Origin: Niallia alba
GTDB lineage: Bacteria > Bacillota > Bacilli > Bacillales > Cytobacillaceae
Direction: 5' to 3'
Assembly (NCBI RefSeq): GCF_012933555.1
Contig: NZ_JABBPK010000001.1
Location: forward strand, 1,094,001-1,158,000
Length of the DNA: 64,000 nucleotides
Made by a program: the position numbers and the translations under genes. Within the stretch, counting starts at the first letter, position 1. Every line of letters begins with the position of its first letter. Under the pieces are notes generated by a model. It saw only the letters and a program-made list of their open reading frames with translations. It was not told the origin of the DNA and did no database searches. Positions 7,139-35,832 of the stretch are shown here, piece by piece.

Positions 7139-8543
7139 CACTAGTGTTGCATTAATTTAAATTCACTATTAAAAATACTCAAAATGTTCAATATTATTAT
7201 TTTGCGCAAAGAAAAAGTCCTTTATAATGGATTAGTCAGGTGGTAACCCGTCCAAATCCACTAAAAAAGGACCATCACATGGACAAGATTACACGAAAAA
7301 CTTCATTTGGACAATGGTTTTCACCTATAAATCTTCAATTATTTGAAGAAAACGTGAAAACGATGAAATTAGATTACTATACGAAAAAATTAACGACAGA
7401 GTCATTTCTAAAATTACTACTTTTTGCGCAGCTACAAGAAATTGAAAGTCTGCATGCGCTGGGTGATTGTCTTTTCGATGACCAGCTTCAAAAAGGGATA
7501 GACCTTGATTCTATTAGTATTTCTCAGTTGTCACGGCGGTTAAACGGCATAAACCCTGATCTATTTCAAAGGCTTTTCCTTGATTTAGTGTCACAAATTC
7601 ATGCCAAAACGCATTACACGAAACTCGTGATGCCGTTAAAAATCATTGATTCAAGCACATTGCCACTTAATTTGACCAATCATAAATGGGCTAAATTCCG
7701 CAAAACAAAAGCAGGTGTAAAGTTACATTTGCGCCTTGTGTTTATGGAAAAGGGTATATCCTATCCTGAAAAGGCCGTTATGACAACGGCAAAAGAACAT
7801 GACCGTGGTCAGCTTGAAATCATGGTGGATGACAAGGAATGCATGTATGTGTTTGACCGTGGTTATCTAGACTACGAGCGCTTTGATCGCATGACTGATG
7901 ATGGCTACTTCTTTCTTTCACGGCTACGCAAAAATGCAGTCATACGGAACGTTTACGATTTTAAGCTACCCAAGGATACAGCTGTTTTATCAGACCAAAT
8001 GGTGTTGATAGGTACGACTCAAAACCGTGCTGAAAATTACTTTCGGCTTCTAAAAGTGATGGACTCAAAAGGAAATGAACTTCATTTAATTACAAATCGT
8101 TTTGATTTAAGCGCCGAAGAAATTTCAGAAATGTATAAATCACGGTGGGCAATTGAGCTGTTTTTTAAATGGATCAAACAACATCTCAGCATCAAAAAGT
8201 TCTACGGTCAAAGCGAATGGGCGATTCAAAATCAAGTATTTATCGCACTAATTGTTTTTTGCCTACATGTTCTCGTGCAAATCGAGACCAGAAGCAAGCG
8301 AAAAACCTTACAGATTAGCCGTTATCTAAGGGCTGCATTGTGGAAACCAGCGAATGTTTGGCTTCGAAAGATTGAAGGAAAAGCCATCCCTTAAATATGC
8401 AAATTGTCGTCGTTGCAAAAGTCTAATTGTAAATAAATTTCCAAATGGATGGGGCCACCTTTGATTGGGTATTTACTTTTTTGCCTCTAAACAGGGAAGG
8501 TGAGTAAACTGAAAATTATGACACTATTTATGCAACACTAGTG
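7139..8543 (+). mobile_element. IS4-family insertion sequence, copy 1, intact
   Basis: 1405 bp. Terminal inverted repeats read CACTAGTGTTGCATTAA at the left and the complement of CACTAGTGTTGCATAAA at the right. It is bounded by a perfect 9-bp target duplication ATACAATAT at 7130-7138 and 8544-8552. One transposase gene fills it. It inserted about 27 bp in front of the start codon of the small membrane-protein gene at 8579. A second copy is at 26747-28187. Confidence 0.95.
7279..8394 (+). CDS. IS4-family DDE transposase
   Basis: 371 aa from ATG 7279, which follows AAAAAAGGA at good spacing; the frame opens 13 codons earlier but without a ribosome site. DDE signatures are visible: IIDSSTLPL (first D), YVFDRGYLDYERF (second D, DRGY), and the YREK box YKSRWAIELFFKWIK holding the catalytic Glu. 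All residues appear intact, so this copy may be active. Nearly identical to the transposase at 26895-28010; differences are scattered substitutions such as RNVYDF versus REVYDF. Confidence 0.95.
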   Translation: MDKITRKTSFGQWFSPINLQLFEENVKTMKLDYYTKKLTTESFLKLLLFAQLQEIESLHALGDCLFDDQLQKGIDLDSISISQLSRRLNGINPDLFQRLFLDLVSQIHAKTHYTKLVMPLKIIDSSTLPLNLTNHKWAKFRKTKAGVKLHLRLVFMEKGISYPEKAVMTTAKEHDRGQLEIMVDDKECMYVFDRGYLDYERFDRMTDDGYFFLSRLRKNAVIRNVYDFKLPKDTAVLSDQMVLIGTTQNRAENYFRLLKVMDSKGNELHLITNRFDLSAEEISEMYKSRWAIELFFKWIKQHLSIKKFYGQSEWAIQNQVFIALIVFCLHVLVQIETRSKRKTLQISRYLRAALWKPANVWLRKIEGKAIP

Positions 8544-11010: not shown

Positions 11011-11325
11011 TCAGTATCCTGGATAATAAGGAGTTGTATATGGATACGGATACGGGGATGGATAAGGATACGAATATGGGTAAGGAGCAGGTACTGGGTA
11101 CGGAGCTGGTGTTGCCGCTGCGCCAAGAGCTAATCCTGTAAGAGTACCTAATGCAAATCCTCCTCCTGGATAATATCCACCTTGATGATGCCAGTTTCCA
11201 CCGTGTCCCCAATTTGGATTTCCGCCGCCATGTTGGTGCCAATTAGCGTTACCACCATGGCCTCCTGATGCATGACCGCCACCGCCATGATGTGATCTCA
11301 TACCTGTTTGATTAAAATTCACCAT
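11011..11325 (-). CDS. His/Gly-rich, Pro-Tyr-rich small protein, copy 1
   Basis: 104 aa of strongly biased composition: an N-terminal half rich in Gly, His, Asn and Trp (HHGGGGH, NWHQHGGG), a short hydrophobic segment FALGTLTGLALGAAA, and a C-terminal run of PYP/YPY repeats. There is no classical signal peptide. A strong AAAGGAAAGGGG ribosome site lies upstream; ATG 11325 or the next GTG codon may be the true start, the latter aligning with the ATG of copy 2. Such composition is seen in coat-type or surface proteins and metal-binding peptides, but I do not recognise the family. A paralogue with about 90% identity is at 29341-29652. Confidence 0.65.
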   Translation of the reverse strand: MVNFNQTGMRSHHGGGGHASGGHGGNANWHQHGGGNPNWGHGGNWHHQGGYYPGGGFALGTLTGLALGAAATPAPYPVPAPYPYSYPYPSPYPYPYTTPYYPGY

Positions 11326-26894: not shown

Positions 26895-28010
26895 TTAAGG
26901 AATGGTTTTTCCTTCAATCTTTCGAAGCCAAATATGTGCTGGTTTCCACAAAGCTGCCCGTAAATATCGGCTAATTTGTAGGGTTTTTCGTTTACTTTTT
27001 GTCTCGATTTGTGCGAGAACATGCAGGCAAAAAACAATAAGTGCGATAAACACTTGATTCTGAATTGCCCATTCGCTTTGGCCGTAAAACTTTTTGATAT
27101 GGAGATGTTGTTTAATCCATTTGAAAAATAACTCAATCGCCCAGCGTGATTTATACATCTTTGAGATTTCTTCAGCACTTAAATCAAAACGATTTGTGAT
27201 TAAATGAAGCTCATTTCCTTTTGAATCAATCACTTTTAGAAGACGAAAGTAATTTTCGGCACGGTTTTGCGTCGTACCAATCAACACCATTTGATCCGAC
27301 AAAACAGATGTATTCTCGGGTAGTTTAAAATCGTAAACCTCCCGTATGACTGCGTTTTTTCGCAGCCTAGAAAGGAAAAAGTAGCCGTCATCTGTCATCC
27401 GATCAAAGCGTTCGTAGTCTAAGTAACCACGGTCAAACACATACATACATTCCTTGTCATCAACCATTACTTCAAGCTGACCGCGGTCATGTTCTTTGGC
27501 CGTTGTCATAATGGCCTTTTCGGGATAGGATATACCTTTTTCCATAAACACAAGGCGTAAGTGCAATTTAACACCCGCTTTTGTTTTGCGGAATTTTGCC
27601 CATTTATGATTAGTCAAATTGAGAGGCAATGTGCTTGAATCAATGATTTTTAATGGCATCACAAGTTTCGTGTTGTGCGTTTTGGCATGAATTTGTGAAA
27701 CTAAATCAAGGAAAAGCTTTTGGAATAAGTCTGGATTCATGCCATTTAAACGGCGTGAGAGTTGGGAAATACTGATAGAATCAAGATCAATGCCCTTTTG
27801 CAGTTGATCATCGAAAAGACAATCGCTCAGCGCATGCAGACTTTCGACTTCTTCTAGCTGCGCAAAAAGTAATAATTTTAGAAATGACTCTGTCGTTAGT
27901 TTTTTCGTATAGAAATCTAATTTCAACGTTTTCACGTTTTCTTCAAATAATTGAAGATTTATTGGTGAAAACCATTGTCCAAATGAAGTTTTTCGTGTAA
28001 TCTTGTCCAT
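26895..28010 (-). CDS. IS4-family DDE transposase, copy 2
   Basis: 371 aa from ATG 28010, equivalent to the start used in copy 1; the frame extends upstream to 28109 but without homologous need. The motifs IIDSSTLPL, FDRGYLDYERF and YKSRWAIELFFKWIK are all intact. It differs from copy 1 by scattered substitutions (for example QLEEVESLHALSD, HIKKFYG), so the two are not a very recent transposition pair. Confidence 0.93.
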   Translation of the reverse strand: MDKITRKTSFGQWFSPINLQLFEENVKTLKLDFYTKKLTTESFLKLLLFAQLEEVESLHALSDCLFDDQLQKGIDLDSISISQLSRRLNGMNPDLFQKLFLDLVSQIHAKTHNTKLVMPLKIIDSSTLPLNLTNHKWAKFRKTKAGVKLHLRLVFMEKGISYPEKAIMTTAKEHDRGQLEVMVDDKECMYVFDRGYLDYERFDRMTDDGYFFLSRLRKNAVIREVYDFKLPENTSVLSDQMVLIGTTQNRAENYFRLLKVIDSKGNELHLITNRFDLSAEEISKMYKSRWAIELFFKWIKQHLHIKKFYGQSEWAIQNQVFIALIVFCLHVLAQIETKSKRKTLQISRYLRAALWKPAHIWLRKIEGKTIP

Positions 28011-28111
28011 GCGATAGTCCTTTTTAGTGGATTTGGACGGGTTACCACCTAACTTATCCATTATAAAGGACTTTTTCTTTGCATAAAATGATAAAATTGA
28101 ACATTTCAAGT

Positions 28112-29340: not shown

Positions 29341-29652
29341 TTAGTATCCTGGATAATAAGGATTCGAATATGGATATGGATACGGGGATGGATAAGGATA
29401 TGCATACGGGTAAGGAGCAGGTACTGGATAAGGAGCTGGTGTTGCCGCCGCGCCAAGTGCTAATCCTGTAAGAGTACCTAATGCAAACCCTCCTCCTGGA
29501 TAATTTCCACCTTGATGAGACCAGTTTCCACCATGTCCCCAATTTGGATGTCCGCCTCCATGTTGATGCCAATTAGTGTGACCACCATGGCCTCTTGATG
29601 GATGACCTCCACCGCCATGATGTGACCTCATACCTGTTTGATTAAAATTCAT
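29341..29652 (-). CDS. His/Gly-rich, Pro-Tyr-rich small protein, copy 2
   Basis: 103 aa, ATG 29652 behind AAAGGAAAGGGG. Same architecture as the protein at 11011-11325: GGGGH and NWHQHGGGH repeats, the identical FALGTLTGLALGAAATPAPYP core and a PYPYAYPYPSPYPYPY tail. Differences are mostly His/Asn/Ser exchanges. The 5' flank is also shared to about position 29800, so the whole locus was duplicated, not just the gene. Function unknown; His-rich content would allow metal binding. Confidence 0.65.
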   Translation of the reverse strand: MNFNQTGMRSHHGGGGHPSRGHGGHTNWHQHGGGHPNWGHGGNWSHQGGNYPGGGFALGTLTGLALGAAATPAPYPVPAPYPYAYPYPSPYPYPYSNPYYPGY

Positions 29653-29899: not shown

Positions 29900-29937
29900 T
29901 GAGAATCGTTTTCACCAAATGGGATTTAGTGTATAAT
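29900..29937 (+). promoter_or_regulatory. Promoter with Fur-like box upstream of the transporter-mevalonate operon
   Basis: TGAGAATCGTTTTCA (29900-29914) matches 11 of 14 positions of the 7-1-7 Fur consensus. Its last bases form a -35 (TTTTCA, 29909) exactly 17 bp from a perfect -10 TATAAT (29932). The geometry is that of a repressible promoter 68 bp before the first start codon. Confidence 0.55.
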
Positions 29938-30004
29938 CTTCCTGGGGAAGTAGAACCTATCAGTATGCTCATTTCTGATCATTAAATACAAGGAGTTTGA
30001 TTGT

Positions 30005-30250
30005 ATGGATAATAAAAAGAAGCAAGATGCAAACGATAATATTGAGGTCTGGGAGGATCTTGTTCAAATAAAGGATTTGGTTATGGCACTAGTTATTTGT
30101 AGTATAACGACTATGGGTGCCTATTTTATCGCGCCAAATGAAGCGCCAAAGCCATTGTTTTTTGGCCTTGCTGGTGCACTTATTGGGTTTATCATTTGCA
30201 GTTTTATTATTAAGCCAAAAAGAAACTTTAAGGGAACAGGAGAAAAATAA
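30005..30250 (+). CDS. Small two-helix membrane protein, possible TctB-like subunit
   Basis: 81 aa, ATG 30005 after AAGGAG. A charged N-terminus (DNKKKQDANDNIEVWEDL) precedes two helices at about 27-44 and 50-68 and a basic tail. It overlaps the TctA-like permease start (TAATG). In tripartite tricarboxylate transporters the small TctB subunit accompanies TctA; this one is about half the usual TctB length with two helices instead of four. It may be a reduced TctB or an unrelated accessory. No TctC-type binding protein is nearby. Confidence 0.6.
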   Translation: MDNKKKQDANDNIEVWEDLVQIKDLVMALVICSITTMGAYFIAPNEAPKPLFFGLAGALIGFIICSFIIKPKRNFKGTGEK

Positions 30251-31599
30251 TGGACATCGTATTAATTATAGAGATGATTGCTGCTGCCGTTTTAGCAGCT
30301 GTTTTATATACAATAATCGGCGTTGCGCCAGGGACAGATGAAACGGCTGTTTTAGCACCGGTGACGTTAGCGATCGTATTGGCAGGGGTAGAGCCAATTG
30401 TAGTTTTAACCTTCTTTATTTCTGCGATTGTGGCCAATAAAGTAACAGATTCGATTCCGGTTGCTCTCGCTGGTATTCCTGGCGGGGTGATGGCGACTCC
30501 GATGGTGGAGCATGCACTCGTGTTAAAAAAACATGGCATGCCTGATATCAGTATTCGCAAAATGGCATCCGGTTCTGTCATCGGGACGCTCGTTTCGGTT
30601 CCCGTAAGTTTACTGATGGCACAAGCTTTAATCCCATTTTCTGATGTCATCAAAGAATACGCAAATCCTCTCTTTTTCATTGGTGCCGTTTTACTTGCAT
30701 TAATGACAAAAAATAAGTTGTTAGCACTTGTATCGATTTTTCCGTTTGCTCTATTAATTGAAGGCTTGCGCTATCTTTATTGGGGAATTGGCGTTGTACC
30801 AGAGGGAACGAATGTCTTCACTTCTTTCTTCTTAGGAATCACAATCGGTCCCGTCATTCTGACCTTGTTTGAACTTTTACATAAAGAAAAACGAGATAGT
30901 ATGCCAAGATTTCCGAAGAAAACCATTGATTTTGCGCAAACGAATCCCATTAAAGGATTCCCCAGTCCCTTTAAACTATTGACAAAACAGGAAACTGGAT
31001 CGAGTATGCTTGCTAGTTTTATTGGCTCGATTACCTTTATTATGAGCCCTGTTGGCATGACTATTTTCCTTGGAGAACTTTTTTCAAGCAGGGTCAAAGA
31101 TCCGGTGAAAAAAGCTTCTGTAGCTATCGCGTCTATGGAGGGGCTGACTAATGCTACCTATATTTCTGGAACCTTGATTCCGTTAATTGCACTCGGTATC
31201 CCATTGTCTCCAATGGCGATTGGTCCAGCAAATGCACTTTTTAATGCACCGCCAGTGTTTACAACAGAGCATAATCTGCATCACCTCTTATCGAATGCAG
31301 ACTTTGTCTGGGCAACTCTCATTGGTGCAACGATTGCCCTTGCGATCACGTATTTTGTTACCGTAAAATATGCCCACAAAATCTGTGCTTTTGTGTTCCG
31401 GTGGGTTCCCCACGAAGCAATCCTAGGACTATTTTTTGGACTTGTGCTATTATTAGCTTTTATGGACGCTGGTTTTATCAATATTATCGGTGTTCTAGTC
31501 ATTGGGTTATTTGCTGGTATGCTTCATCGATGGGGCGTGAATTATGGCGTACAGTTTATGATCCTTTATTCAGCGCCATGGATTATTACTTGGTTTTAA
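30250..31599 (+). CDS. TctA-family (tripartite tricarboxylate transporter) permease
   Basis: 449 aa, ten or more hydrophobic segments. A TctA-type conserved loop APGTDETAVLAPVTLAI lies near residue 28, in place of the PGLGP motif, and the second repeat carries a GIPLSPMAIGPANALF loop near 310; ALAGIPGGVMATPM near 75 is another family feature. TctA permeases import carboxylates such as citrate, using an ion gradient. It is coupled to the small protein upstream and 63 bp before the mevalonate kinase gene on the same strand with no terminator. The context suggests the substrate may be mevalonate or another small carboxylate feeding those enzymes; this is inference. Confidence 0.8.
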   Translation: MDIVLIIEMIAAAVLAAVLYTIIGVAPGTDETAVLAPVTLAIVLAGVEPIVVLTFFISAIVANKVTDSIPVALAGIPGGVMATPMVEHALVLKKHGMPDISIRKMASGSVIGTLVSVPVSLLMAQALIPFSDVIKEYANPLFFIGAVLLALMTKNKLLALVSIFPFALLIEGLRYLYWGIGVVPEGTNVFTSFFLGITIGPVILTLFELLHKEKRDSMPRFPKKTIDFAQTNPIKGFPSPFKLLTKQETGSSMLASFIGSITFIMSPVGMTIFLGELFSSRVKDPVKKASVAIASMEGLTNATYISGTLIPLIALGIPLSPMAIGPANALFNAPPVFTTEHNLHHLLSNADFVWATLIGATIALAITYFVTVKYAHKICAFVFRWVPHEAILGLFFGLVLLLAFMDAGFINIIGVLVIGLFAGMLHRWGVNYGVQFMILYSAPWIITWF

Positions 31600-31662
31600 A
31601 AATTAGACAAGAGATATTCATCTAGATGAACATCCAATATTTCGATGAAAGTGGGGATATCG

Positions 31663-32613
31663 ATGCTTGAAACTCCACAAAAAGTTGCGGTAGGCCGAGC
31701 ACATAGTAAGCTAATTTTAATTGGAGAGCATTCGGTTGTTTACGGACAACCGGCGATTGCTTTCCCATTTAAACAAATAGAAGTTAAAGTGACAGTGAAA
31801 AATATCGAGGGCAATGCGATCCAAATCGAAAGCCCCTTTTATCAAGGACCGCTAGAACAGATTCCTGAAAAGATGGAGGGAATTGGTGATTGCATCATCC
31901 AAACATTAAAGGTTCTTGAACAACGTTCCTCAGGTTTACATATTCAGATTGCATCCTCGATTCCAATTGGACGTGGATTAGGTTCAAGTGCAGCGATTGC
32001 GATTGCACTTGTTCGCGGTCTTTTTGTCTTTTTCAATCAAGAACTCAGCGATAGTCAGCTGATGGCCTTGGTGGAACGTGCGGAAAAATTTGCCCATGGA
32101 ACACCAAGTGGAATCGATATGATGACTGCTTCTAGCGCCAATCCGATTTGGTTCCAAAAACAACATGTGGTAGAACATGTGAAAATTGGTGCTCCTTTTC
32201 ACTTTGTCGTAGCAGACAGTGGTAGAGTTGGTGACACTTATGCAGCAGTAAAATCGATTCGAGATAAGTATGAAATCAAACCGGAGAAAATCGAGGAATC
32301 AATTACACTGCTTGGCAAATTGGCACTAGAAGTGCGACAAGGACTAGCAGCTGGTGATTCTCAACAGGTTGGCGATAAATTAAATCAAGCACAACAACAT
32401 TTAGCTTTGTTAGGTGTCAGTGACCCAGGATTAGATGGTCTAGTAGATACGGCTCGAACTGCTGGAGCAATAGCCGCGAAATTAACCGGTGGCGGCCGCG
32501 GTGGTTGTATTTTAGCATTGGTAGAAAATGAACAGCTCGGAAAAAAAGTAGCTGATGCCTTGATTCAAGCTGGTGCCGCACAAACATGGCAGTACACGAT
32601 AGCTAAATGCTGA
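31663..32613 (+). CDS. mvaK1: Mevalonate kinase
   Basis: 316 aa from ATG 31663 behind GTGGGG; an ATG six codons earlier is possible. GHMP kinase: N-terminal GRAHSKLILIGEHSVVYG, ATP loop PIGRGLGSSAAIAIAL, GTPSGIDMMTA with catalytic Asp, and C-terminal KLTGGGRGGCILAL. Converts mevalonate to 5-phosphomevalonate, the first step of the lower mevalonate route. Followed 22 bp later by mvaD. Confidence 0.93.
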   Translation: MLETPQKVAVGRAHSKLILIGEHSVVYGQPAIAFPFKQIEVKVTVKNIEGNAIQIESPFYQGPLEQIPEKMEGIGDCIIQTLKVLEQRSSGLHIQIASSIPIGRGLGSSAAIAIALVRGLFVFFNQELSDSQLMALVERAEKFAHGTPSGIDMMTASSANPIWFQKQHVVEHVKIGAPFHFVVADSGRVGDTYAAVKSIRDKYEIKPEKIEESITLLGKLALEVRQGLAAGDSQQVGDKLNQAQQHLALLGVSDPGLDGLVDTARTAGAIAAKLTGGGRGGCILALVENEQLGKKVADALIQAGAAQTWQYTIAKC

Positions 32614-32635
32614 TAATAAATGAGGAGTGTGGTTA

Positions 32636-33625
32636 ATGGAAGCGATCGCTCGAGCTCACACAAATATTGCATTAATAAAATATTGGGGAAAACGAAATTC
32701 GCAATTGTTTTTACCGACAAATAGTAGTTTATCCATTACATTGGATCATTTTTACACAGAAACAAAGGTCCAGTTTTCTGACCAGTTTGAAAAGGATAGC
32801 TTGCTATTAGATGGCAGCCAAGCAACAGATAAAGAAATAGTAAAAATAACAGCTTTTCTAAATCATGTGCGCAATCTTGCAGGTACTAAAACCTTTGCAA
32901 AGGTGACATCGGTTAACCATGTGCCAACAGCTGCTGGTTTTGCTTCCTCTGCTTCTGGTTATGCGGCATTAGCTACAGCTGCAAGTAAAGCGTTACAGTT
33001 AGATTTAACAGGCACAGAGCTATCTGCCTTAGCTCGTCAAGGTTCTGGTTCTGCTTCTCGCTCCATTTTTGGAGGGTTTGTCGAATGGCATAAAGGGGAG
33101 AATGAAGCAGGAACCGATTCGTTTGCGACGCAAATTTTAGACGAAAAAGCGTGGAATGTTAGTGTGTTATCGGTTGTAGTGGAAGCAGGTCCAAAATCTG
33201 TTTCAAGCAGAGATGGTATGCAGCGGACAGTAGAGACTTCACCTTTCTATGACGGCTGGTTAGCAACAGTCGAAGAGGATCTGAAGTTGATGAAGGAAGC
33301 AATTAACGATCGTGACTTCACAAAGCTAGGGGAAATTGCTGAAGCGAACGCTTTAAAAATGCATGCTACAACGTTAGGAGCAAAGCCGCCATTTTTATAT
33401 TGGCAAAGTGCAACACTGGACGTTATGCAGAAGGTCATGGAATTGCGCCAACAAGGCTTGGAAGCTTATTTCACCATTGATGCCGGACCGAATGTAAAAG
33501 TACTTTGTGAACCAGAGAATGAAGAGATGATTAAAGAAAAGCTAGCTGCTTTATCCTCTGTTCGAGATGTAATTGTATGTCATCCAGGACCAGGCATTCA
33601 GTACTTATCTGATTGGAACGGATAA
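32636..33625 (+). CDS. mvaD: Diphosphomevalonate decarboxylase
   Basis: 329 aa, ATG 32636 with GAGGAG upstream (the GTG at 32627 overlaps the ribosome site). Typical N-terminus ARAHTNIALIKYWGKRN, substrate and ATP loop PTAAGFASSASGYAALA, and C-terminal AYFTIDAGPNVKVL. Converts mevalonate diphosphate to isopentenyl diphosphate with ATP hydrolysis. The order mvaK1-mvaD-mvaK2-fni is that of Gram-positive cocci mevalonate operons, unusual for Bacillaceae, which generally use the MEP pathway. Confidence 0.95.
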   Translation: MEAIARAHTNIALIKYWGKRNSQLFLPTNSSLSITLDHFYTETKVQFSDQFEKDSLLLDGSQATDKEIVKITAFLNHVRNLAGTKTFAKVTSVNHVPTAAGFASSASGYAALATAASKALQLDLTGTELSALARQGSGSASRSIFGGFVEWHKGENEAGTDSFATQILDEKAWNVSVLSVVVEAGPKSVSSRDGMQRTVETSPFYDGWLATVEEDLKLMKEAINDRDFTKLGEIAEANALKMHATTLGAKPPFLYWQSATLDVMQKVMELRQQGLEAYFTIDAGPNVKVLCEPENEEMIKEKLAALSSVRDVIVCHPGPGIQYLSDWNG

Positions 33626-33684
33626 TGGTAAAATAAGTAGGAAAAGGTAACGATAAATGAGGACTTTAAAGGGAGTGAGTCCGG

Positions 33685-34761
33685 ATGCATGAAATGAAAG
33701 TTCCCGGGAAACTGTTTATTGCTGGGGAATATGCCGTATTGGAACCAGGTTATCCGGCAATCGTGGTGGCAGTGGACCGGTTTATTACAGCACGCGTTAC
33801 GATGAGTGAACAGCAGACTCTTTCTTTGCCACAGCTAGGTCTCGCCAATGTAGCTTGCCGATTTGAGCATGGACAAGTGATTTTTGAAGAGACAGATGCA
33901 AGATTGGCTTTTATCAAAAACACATTGGATGTGGTCCATCACTATTTACGGGAAAGCTCTATAGAGACCAAGCCCTTTTCGCTTACAGTTACAAGTGAAT
34001 TGGATGATGTCGCCTCAGGCCGAAAATATGGATTGGGTTCAAGTGCAGCAGTAGTTGTCGCAGTGGTATCCTCTGTTTTAACATTGTATCGGGATCAATT
34101 GATGGTTTCGAAAAAACTTATTTATAAACTAGCTGCGATTGCTCACTATCAGACACAAGGAAGTGGTTCTTGTGCAGATGTAGCCGCCTCAACATATGGC
34201 GGTTGGCTCCACTACACAGCTTTTAAAGCAAGCTGGTTAAAAGAAAAGCTTTTGGAACAAAGTTCTATTGCCCAATTGGTTGAAGCAGATTGGCCATATC
34301 TGGAAATAGAGCAGCTGGAAGCACCACAAGAATTAGTGCTTGCGGTTGGGTGGACAGGTAGTTCTGCTAAAACAGCTTCTTTGATTAAAAAAATAGAACC
34401 GCTTAAGCTTCAGGGTTCTACTATTTATCAAGCGTTTCTTCGGAAAAGTCGTGATGCTGTTTCTACTATGGTGGAAGGTTTTAAGCAGAACGATAGGAAG
34501 CTGGCTATGACAAGTCTATCCGCTAATCGGTCTGCATTGCTAGAATTAAGTCAAGAAACTGGCGGGGCTATTGAAACGGTTCATTTAGAAAAGTTGATTC
34601 AAATTGCTAATCACTATGGAGCCGGGAAATCATCTGGAGCTGGTGGCGGCGATTGTGGTATTGCTTTTACGAGTACGGACAAGCTTGAACAATTACATAA
34701 AGAATGGCGGGATGTTGGCATTGTTCCATTAGATATCCTTCCAGCAACAAAATATAATTAG
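33685..34761 (+). CDS. mvaK2: Phosphomevalonate kinase
   Basis: 358 aa, ATG 33685. GHMP kinase with KVPGKLFIAGEYAVLEPGYP at the start, ATP loop RKYGLGSSAAVVVAVVSS, QGSGSCADVAASTYGGW (catalytic segment) and GAGKSSGAGGGDCGIAF near the C-terminus, all hallmarks of bacterial-type phosphomevalonate kinase. Makes mevalonate diphosphate for MvaD. The next gene starts 15 bp after its stop. Confidence 0.95.
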   Translation: MHEMKVPGKLFIAGEYAVLEPGYPAIVVAVDRFITARVTMSEQQTLSLPQLGLANVACRFEHGQVIFEETDARLAFIKNTLDVVHHYLRESSIETKPFSLTVTSELDDVASGRKYGLGSSAAVVVAVVSSVLTLYRDQLMVSKKLIYKLAAIAHYQTQGSGSCADVAASTYGGWLHYTAFKASWLKEKLLEQSSIAQLVEADWPYLEIEQLEAPQELVLAVGWTGSSAKTASLIKKIEPLKLQGSTIYQAFLRKSRDAVSTMVEGFKQNDRKLAMTSLSANRSALLELSQETGGAIETVHLEKLIQIANHYGAGKSSGAGGGDCGIAFTSTDKLEQLHKEWRDVGIVPLDILPATKYN

Positions 34762-34776
34762 ACTGGAGTTTGGAGA

Positions 34777-35796
34777 ATGACTGATTCAATTGACAAAAGA
34801 AAAGCCCAGCATATTGAGTTGGTTTTAAATGAAAAAGTAACAGGTGATAACATTTCGACTGGTCTTGAAAAGTATCGCTTTTTACATAATGCCTTGCCGG
34901 AAATTGATTTTGATGAGATTACATTAGATACACCGTTTTTAGGTAAAAAGCTTCGGACTCCTTTTTTGGTAAGCTCAATGACGGGTGGCGCTGCGATGGC
35001 AGAGACGATTAACCGAAACCTAGCAATTGCCGCAGAAGAACGAGGTTGGACGTTTGCTTTAGGCTCTACAAGAGCACTAATTGAACATGAAAAATATCGA
35101 GAATCTTTTCAAATTCGAAAATATGCACCAACGATTCCAATCATCGCTAATTTAGGTGCGGTGCAGTTTAATTATGGATTTGGAGTGGATCAGTGTAAAC
35201 AAATTATGGAGATGACGGAAGCTGACATGCTCGTTCTCCATTTGAATAGTATCCAAGAAATCGTTCAACAAGAAGGAGATCGTAATTTTAAAGGTCTGTT
35301 AGAGAAAATTGAACAAGTATGCACACAGCTGGATGTTCCAGTTGGGGCAAAAGAGGTTGGCTTTGGCATCGATGGCACCATCGCGAAAAAATTGACCGAC
35401 GTTGGAATCTCCTTTATTGATGTCGCTGGTGCAGGCGGAACATCATGGAGCCAAGTGGAAAAACTACGCTCAAACGAAAAGATTAAGAAAATAGCAGCCG
35501 AGGCTTTTAGTAGCTGGGGAATCCCCACTGCTGAATGTATTGTTTCCGTTAGCGAAGCGATTGACCAACCGATTATTGCTAGCGGTGGGATTAAAAATGG
35601 ACTAGAGGCTGCTAAAGCAATAGCACTTGGATCAGATATGGTTGGTTTTGCTCGTTCGATTTTAAAAGAGGCTACTGAATCACCAGAAGATCTGATAGAG
35701 GTTTTTGAAATTAGAGAGCTAGAACTGCAGATGGCTATGTTTGGAGTTGGAGCGGCAACTGTTGGAGAATTAAAGGGAACGGATAGGATTAAGTAG
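34777..35796 (+). CDS. fni: Type 2 isopentenyl-diphosphate delta-isomerase
   Basis: 339 aa, ATG 34777 after TGGAG. FMN-dependent TIM-barrel isomerase: R-K-x-x-H near the start (DKRKAQHIE), SSMTGGAAMAETINRNLA, AKEVGFGIDG, IDVAGAGGTSWSQVE, ASGGIKNG and the end GVGAATVGELKG. Interconverts IPP and DMAPP, completing the route from mevalonate. Last gene of the operon, followed by a terminator. Confidence 0.95.
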   Translation: MTDSIDKRKAQHIELVLNEKVTGDNISTGLEKYRFLHNALPEIDFDEITLDTPFLGKKLRTPFLVSSMTGGAAMAETINRNLAIAAEERGWTFALGSTRALIEHEKYRESFQIRKYAPTIPIIANLGAVQFNYGFGVDQCKQIMEMTEADMLVLHLNSIQEIVQQEGDRNFKGLLEKIEQVCTQLDVPVGAKEVGFGIDGTIAKKLTDVGISFIDVAGAGGTSWSQVEKLRSNEKIKKIAAEAFSSWGIPTAECIVSVSEAIDQPIIASGGIKNGLEAAKAIALGSDMVGFARSILKEATESPEDLIEVFEIRELELQMAMFGVGAATVGELKGTDRIK

Positions 35797-35797
35797 G

Positions 35798-35832
35798 GAA
35801 GCAGAGTGACGGTTCTTTTGCTTCTTTTTTTT
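35798..35832 (+). terminator. Terminator of the mevalonate operon
   Basis: GAAGCA and TGCTTC flank a 15-base loop and are followed by eight T. Confidence 0.75.

What the first reader, a model, noticed from the sequence alone, without database searches (positions are those of the whole stretch)
29900..35832. Possible mevalonate salvage operon: TctA-like importer fused to the lower mevalonate pathway under a Fur-like promoter
Seen: one promoter (Fur-like box, -35/-10), then a small membrane protein, a TctA-family carboxylate permease, mvaK1, mvaD, mvaK2 and fni, all same strand, 63 bp or less between genes, terminator only at the end. HMG-CoA synthase and reductase are not in the window. Known: Bacillaceae normally use the MEP route; TctA permeases import carboxylates; mevalonate is a C6 hydroxy-carboxylate. 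Inference: the operon imports external mevalonate (or mevalonolactone-derived acid, or mevalonyl moieties of fungal siderophores, which would fit iron control) and converts it to IPP/DMAPP.
Basis: partly seen in the sequence, partly recalled or inferred. Interest (0 to 1): 0.85.

Follow-up and report, generated by a model that had tools for sequence, protein, structure and literature searches.

The report
Iron-controlled mevalonate uptake and salvage operon
This Bacillus relative carries one operon that appears to import ready-made mevalonate from its surroundings and turn it into the building blocks of isoprenoids by iron-free enzymes, switched on when iron is scarce, which points to an unrecognised bacterial mevalonate importer and a backup for the iron-dependent standard pathway.

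Summary
The operon is real (29900-35832): Fur-type box over the -35, smp, tctA, mvaK1, mvaD, mvaK2, fni. The complete genome has no HMG-CoA reductase or synthase but has MEP genes, so mevalonate must come from outside. The transporter pair tracks mevalonate enzymes: among 249 genomes of the order 17 have tctA, 20 have mvaD, 16 have both, and the seventeenth has degradative HMG-CoA reductase beside smp-tctA. Eighteen Firmicute loci and four plasmid loci of Proteobacteria place the pair beside degradative HMG-CoA reductase; three of the latter also carry HMG-CoA lyase. Mevalonate is the only metabolite that mevalonate kinase and this reductase share. The Fur box is at 25 of 31 salvage operons and 2 of 39 complete-pathway operons, also where gene order differs, though few of these contrasts are phylogenetically independent. 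In this genome the same box marks siderophore uptake genes and a flavodoxin. Salvage genomes keep the Fe-S enzyme IspG; most complete-pathway genomes lack it. Uptake, Fur binding and physiology are untested. No report of such an operon turned up in the papers held.

The parts
29900..29914 (+). Fur-type operator TGAGAATCGTTTTCA (11/14 to TGATAATNATTATCA)
   Evidence: conserved in Niallia; 14/14 in other salvage operons; same box marks siderophore genes in this genome
29909..29937 (+). sigma-A-type promoter, -35 TTTTCA and -10 TATAAT, spacer 17; the -35 lies inside the Fur box
   Evidence: 10 of 12 matches; -10 invariant
30005..30250 (+). smp: 81-aa membrane protein, two predicted transmembrane helices, predicted small subunit of the transporter
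   Evidence: directly upstream of tctA in all loci compared; about 30% identical to the 150-180-aa protein between HMG-CoA reductase and tctA in Proteobacteria
30250..31599 (+). tctA: 449-aa TctA-family permease, predicted mevalonate importer
   Evidence: Pfam TctA 6e-27; co-occurrence and linkage; AlphaFold model pLDDT 85.3
31645..32613 (+). mvaK1, mevalonate kinase
   Evidence: TIGR00549 264 bits
32627..33625 (+). mvaD, diphosphomevalonate decarboxylase (more likely start: ATG at 32636)
   Evidence: TIGR01240 368 bits
33685..34761 (+). mvaK2, phosphomevalonate kinase
   Evidence: TIGR01220 343 bits
34777..35796 (+). fni, type 2 isopentenyl-diphosphate isomerase (FMN enzyme)
   Evidence: TIGR02151 415 bits
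35798..35832 (+). possible intrinsic terminator, GAAGCA/TGCTTC stem then eight T
   Evidence: sequence; not listed by the scan; fold z-score -0.27

Best explanation
The operon encodes a mevalonate uptake and salvage system. Smp and TctA form a two-part secondary transporter that brings mevalonate from the surroundings into the cell. MvaK1, MvaK2 and MvaD convert it to isopentenyl diphosphate, and Fni makes dimethylallyl diphosphate. The host also has the MEP route, whose last two enzymes IspG and IspH need [4Fe-4S] clusters. The operon is repressed by iron-loaded Fur at a box over the -35 element; when iron is short it is derepressed and supplies isoprenoid precursors by an iron-free route. 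Shown by sequence: gene content and order, absence of mvaS and mvaA, presence of dxr and ispG, co-occurrence of tctA with mevalonate enzymes, and the box. Inferred: direction and substrate of transport, Fur binding, and the iron-sparing purpose.
For: Co-occurrence: in 41 relatives tctA is in 7 genomes, all with full-length mvaK1 and none with HMG-CoA reductase. In 249 genomes of the order, tctA 17, mvaD 20, both 16, and the odd one has degradative HMG-CoA reductase beside smp-tctA. Where tctA is not next to mva genes, 36 of 46 genomes have mvaD elsewhere and the other 10 all have adjacent HMG-CoA reductase. Substrate: the pair is linked to mvaK1-D-K2 in one set and to HMG-CoA reductase of the degradative type (TIGR00532) in another. 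Three Alphaproteobacterial plasmid loci have HMG-CoA reductase, small subunit, tctA and HMG-CoA lyase; Burkholderia has the first three. The shared metabolite is mevalonate. Salvage: mvaS is over cut-off in exactly the 39 of 79 genomes that have both mvaD and HMG-CoA reductase; salvage genomes lack both upper-pathway genes and keep ispG. Iron: a Fur box of 11 or more matches of 14 in 25/31 salvage against 2/39 complete operons, 12 or more in 20/31 against 1/39. In Sporolactobacillus-type operons with another gene order the box is upstream of mvaK1, 14/14 in two. Boxes in this genome precede FecCD and siderophore-binding genes and a flavodoxin.
Against: No experiment has shown transport, Fur binding or expression. 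The box in the window itself is only 11/14; single sites of that quality appear in about 8-10% of shuffled upstream regions, so its weight comes from conservation. The contrast between salvage and complete operons rests on few independent events: 3 independent pairs, 2 in favour, 0 against, 1 tie, sign test p 0.5, so the Fisher p values overstate it. Six of 31 salvage operons lack a box. TctA transporters usually work with a TctC binding protein and none is near. The model has no significant match among solved structures, so the binding site could not be examined.
Confidence: 0.72

Rival explanations
1. Mevalonate import and salvage is right, but Fur control is not about sparing iron in isoprenoid synthesis; for example low iron signals the presence of plants, fungi or other mevalonate donors, or a general starvation state.
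For: The salvage anatomy does not depend on the reason for regulation; 6 of 31 salvage operons have no box.
Against: The box is confined almost wholly to genomes with the Fe-S MEP route plus a lower pathway, as the bypass predicts; but independent contrasts are few.
Confidence: 0.15
2. One reading: the operon uses mevalonyl or anhydromevalonyl groups released from fungal hydroxamate siderophores.
For: Fur control; several fungal siderophores carry mevalonate-derived acyl groups (established knowledge, not tested here).
Against: No siderophore esterase or siderophore transporter recurs within 6-7 kb in the neighbour clusters. Anhydromevalonate is not a mevalonate kinase substrate as far as I know. 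The same transporter without a Fur box serves catabolic operons.
Confidence: 0.05
3. TctA carries another carboxylate, or exports mevalonate, and merely sits beside the mva genes.
For: TTT carriers with known substrates are mostly citrate-type; in complete-pathway genomes export is conceivable.
Against: Nearly perfect co-occurrence over 249 genomes, two different mevalonate enzyme contexts, and absence of mevalonate synthesis genes in salvage and catabolic genomes leave nothing to export there.
Confidence: 0.05
4. The lower pathway is a decaying remnant of a once complete mevalonate pathway.
For: Relatives show decay: G198 has only a 116-aa tctA remnant, and G022 has lost tctA and has a stop inside mvaK1.
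Against: All six window genes are intact and conserved in six Niallia genomes and many genera, with a conserved promoter and operator.
Confidence: 0.03

Closest known systems
Tripartite tricarboxylate transporter (TTT) family, TctA subunit (PF01970)
   Same: TctA family by sequence; a small membrane protein encoded directly upstream, as TctB often is.
   Different: Small subunit is 81 aa with two predicted helices and has no significant Pfam match; no TctC nearby; TTT substrates named in PMC13390454 are citrate-type acids, glucarate and now alginate oligosaccharides, not mevalonate.
Bacterial mevalonate catabolism (degradative HMG-CoA reductase plus HMG-CoA lyase, Pseudomonas mevalonii type)
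   Same: Uses outside mevalonate; homologous transporter genes sit in such operons.
   Different: The window operon phosphorylates mevalonate to make IPP; no reductase or lyase; Fur box instead of a sigma-54 or other catabolic regulator.
Mevalonate-requiring bacteria: hiochi lactobacilli (from memory) and the S. aureus mvaS mutant (PMC6052127)
   Same: Growth on external mevalonate through the lower mevalonate pathway.
   Different: Those are auxotrophs that depend on mevalonate; here the MEP route is kept and salvage looks like an iron-linked supplement. I know of no identified transporter in them.
Dual-pathway bacteria (Listeria, Mycobacterium marinum; PMC12632256, PMC13001223)
   Same: Genes of both isoprenoid routes in one genome.
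   Different: Those have a complete mevalonate pathway; here only the lower half plus an importer.
Known mevalonate importers: mutant mammalian MCT1 F360C and evolved yeast JEN1 (PMC12405511)
   Same: Same substrate predicted.
   Different: Unrelated carrier families, and not natural mevalonate importers. TRAP binding proteins that bind mevalonate have been reported (from memory), also unrelated.

Membership tests
TctA (TTT) transporter family | Match to PF01970 above its cut-off over nearly the whole length | tested here: met
   94.7 bits against 28.9, residues 11-431 on profile 2-417 of 423
TctA (TTT) transporter family | Classical TctB subunit (four helices, about 150 aa, Pfam TctB) | tested here: not met
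   smp is 81 aa with two predicted helices and no significant Pfam match; homologous to a 150-180-aa small subunit in Proteobacteria, also without a Pfam TctB match
TctA (TTT) transporter family | TctC solute-binding protein | tested here: inconclusive
   none in the operon or among recurring neighbours; the rest of the genome was not searched
Lower mevalonate pathway | Intact mvaK1, mvaD, mvaK2 above equivalog cut-offs | tested here: met
Complete mevalonate pathway | HMG-CoA synthase and HMG-CoA reductase in the genome | tested here: not met
   no PF00368 match; only FabH-like matches far below the TIGR01835 cut-off (41.9 vs 360 bits)
Fur regulon | Operator of the 7-1-7 type at the promoter, as at iron genes of the same genome | tested here: met
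   11/14 match over the -35, conserved in relatives; same motif before siderophore genes
Fur regulon | Fur binding and iron-dependent expression | not testable with these tools
   needs EMSA and expression data
Mevalonate catabolism operon | Degradative HMG-CoA reductase with HMG-CoA lyase | tested here: not met
   no HMG-CoA reductase in this genome; met beside relatives of the transporter

The most novel reading that the evidence does not exclude
A widespread bacterial strategy: Fur-derepressed import of environmental mevalonate and its conversion by an iron-free half pathway, which replaces the Fe-S-dependent end of the MEP route in iron starvation, served by a distinct mevalonate-specific two-subunit branch of the TctA carriers that spans Firmicutes and Proteobacteria.
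Probability: 0.6. Interest if true: 0.88.

Novelty: new variant of a known kind. Interest (0 to 1): 0.8.

Why it matters
It would give the first natural mevalonate importer identified in the literature I could search, explain why many MEP-using Bacilli carry only half of the mevalonate pathway, show mevalonate as a scavenged nutrient, and add isoprenoid synthesis to the processes that bacteria re-route to save iron. It also makes testable which bacteria can bypass a blocked MEP route when mevalonate is present, and supplies a part for metabolic engineering.

Tried and rejected
mvaS signal in the own genome (27.5 bits with PF01154): rejected as FabH-like, since the specific model TIGR01835 gives 41.9 bits against a 360-bit cut-off and similar weak matches occur in B. 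subtilis and E. coli. Rfam scan of the window: no match. Solved-structure search by sequence and by fold: nothing significant. Terminator by fold: not distinguishable from shuffles. Tree-independent test of box against pathway type: too few contrasts. The 22 loci with an MBL-fold hydrolase downstream were first suspected to have a different function, but every one of those genomes has mvaD, mvaS and HMG-CoA reductase.

Full report
Observation. The six genes lie on one strand from 30005 to 35796, with gaps of -1, 45, 13, 59 and 15 bp. The enzymes are unambiguous: mvaK1, mvaD, mvaK2 and fni all exceed NCBIfam equivalog cut-offs; the permease is TctA family. The promoter has TTTTCA and TATAAT with a 17-nt spacer, and a Fur-type box TGAGAATCGTTTTCA at 29900-29914 covers the -35. 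In five relatives box and -10 are kept while flanks drift. A possible terminator follows fni, but statistically it is weak.

The genome. The window lies in a 5.24 Mb, two-contig, 100% complete genome. It has no HMG-CoA reductase and no HMG-CoA synthase: the best match is 41.9 bits against a 360-bit cut-off, FabH-like. dxr and ispG are present. So mevalonate cannot be made by the known route, the lower pathway has no internal feed, and the MEP route exists.

Co-occurrence of the transporter. In 41 relatives tctA is found in 7, and these 7 all have full-length mvaK1 and no HMG-CoA reductase; the other 34 lack tctA, and only G022 among them has an mvaK1, with a stop inside. In 249 genomes of the order, tctA 17, mvaD 20, both 16 (Fisher p about 1e-20, not corrected for kinship). 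The one genome with tctA but no mvaD has HMG-CoA reductase, smp and tctA in a row. Of four with mvaD but no tctA, one keeps a 116-aa tctA remnant in place with a 13/14 Fur box.

Three contexts. Eighty named loci plus relatives were compared. smp lies directly upstream of tctA in all of them. (a) 39 loci have mva genes adjacent: mostly smp-tctA-mvaK1-mvaD-mvaK2 with or without fni; in Sporolactobacillus and kin mvaK1-mvaD-mvaK2-fni-smp-tctA with more divergent enzymes. (b) 18 have HMG-CoA reductase of the degradative type upstream (the three scanned score 406-446 bits against 260), six with a sigma-54 activator further upstream. (c) 22 have an MBL-fold hydrolase downstream and the mva operon elsewhere. 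Eight fit none of these. Of 46 genomes with tctA not beside mva genes, 36 have mvaD elsewhere and the 10 without it are all of type (b). About 40% identical homologues on plasmids of Roseomonas, Rhizobium etli and Lichenicola sit beside degradative HMG-CoA reductase, a small subunit and HMG-CoA lyase; Burkholderia has reductase, small subunit, tctA. The one metabolite common to mevalonate kinase and HMG-CoA reductase is mevalonate. This is the main argument for the substrate and, because salvage and catabolic genomes lack the genes to make mevalonate, for import.

Salvage against complete pathway. mvaS is over cut-off in exactly 39 of 79 genomes, those with both mvaD and HMG-CoA reductase. 36 of these 39 lack ispG; the salvage genomes have it, apart from one metagenome assembly. 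So complete-pathway genomes have mostly given up MEP, while salvage genomes run MEP plus an importer-fed half pathway.

Iron. A box with at least 11 of 14 matches to TGATAATNATTATCA is within 300 nt of the operon start in 25 of 31 salvage operons and 2 of 39 complete ones; at least 12 of 14 in 20 and 1; shuffles give 8-10% and about 1%. Perfect boxes occur in L034, L035, L039, L043, L108 and L109. In the rearranged operons the box is upstream of mvaK1, not of smp: it follows the promoter. The smp-tctA promoters of types (b) and (c) have no box of 12 or more. In the own genome several such boxes precede FecCD permeases, siderophore-binding proteins, an ABC ATPase of the siderophore type and a flavodoxin. 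Caution: on the tctA tree there are only three independent contrasts between salvage and complete types, two in favour, none against.

Mechanism. Smp-TctA imports mevalonate; MvaK1, MvaK2, MvaD and Fni make IPP and DMAPP. IspG and IspH are [4Fe-4S] enzymes (established knowledge; discussed in PMC13001223), the lower mevalonate enzymes are not, and Fni uses FMN. Fur derepression in iron starvation would thus open an iron-free route. Sequence shows the parts and the box; substrate, direction and iron logic are inferred.

Known work. [quoted passage not shown] PMC13001223 reviews incomplete and dual pathways; the passages read name no importer. Searches for mevalonate together with the Fur regulon, IspG/IspH under iron limitation, or bacterial uptake gave no report of such an operon. 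Only open-licence papers were searched. The hiochi lactobacilli and TRAP mevalonate-binding proteins are from memory.

Structure. The AlphaFold model is good (pLDDT 85.3, pTM 0.85) but has no match at E 0.001 in the PDB and no sequence match there, so the site could not be compared.

Noticed in passing
L118 6433-10378 and L223 6545-10172 (genome G022, same family): smp with overlapping Fur-like boxes, tctA gone, a stop inside mvaK1; its HMG-CoA reductase sits with a carboxyltransferase and an enoyl-CoA hydratase, as in leucine breakdown, which could make mevalonate from leucine.
   Followed up: partly
L042 11468-12442 and 21 similar loci: In complete-pathway genomes tctA is followed by an MBL-fold hydrolase; it might open mevalonolactone.
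   Followed up: partly
L047 11480-12796 and 10 similar loci: An alpha/beta-hydrolase (EstD-like) with a lipoprotein-like start lies directly downstream of tctA in some Virgibacillus, Oceanobacillus and Lentibacillus.
   Followed up: no
L040 6888-8285 and five other loci: Sigma-54-dependent PAS activator upstream of HMG-CoA reductase-smp-tctA: probable regulator of mevalonate catabolism in Firmicutes.
   Followed up: partly
L214 8850-9468 (genome G198): tctA reduced to a 116-aa remnant between a 13/14 Fur box and mvaK1-D-K2-fni: apparent loss of the importer.
   Followed up: partly
L218 5946-7729 (genome G249): A 44% identical TctA with a 144-aa small subunit in a genome whose mva operon includes HMG-CoA reductase: possible sister transporter.
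   Followed up: no
window 7240-8394 and 26895-28109: Two very similar transposase genes in opposite orientation, about 19 kb apart, upstream of the operon.
   Followed up: no
window 11011-11325 and 29341-29652, - strand: Two close copies of a glycine/histidine-rich small protein (MNFNQTGMRSHHGGGGH...), one just upstream of the operon on the other strand.
   Followed up: no
genome G031 (C31 13410-14189; L224): Degradative-type HMG-CoA reductase, dxr present, no ispG match, and a divergent HMG-CoA synthase-like protein on the same contig: unusual isoprenoid gene set or assembly gap.
   Followed up: no
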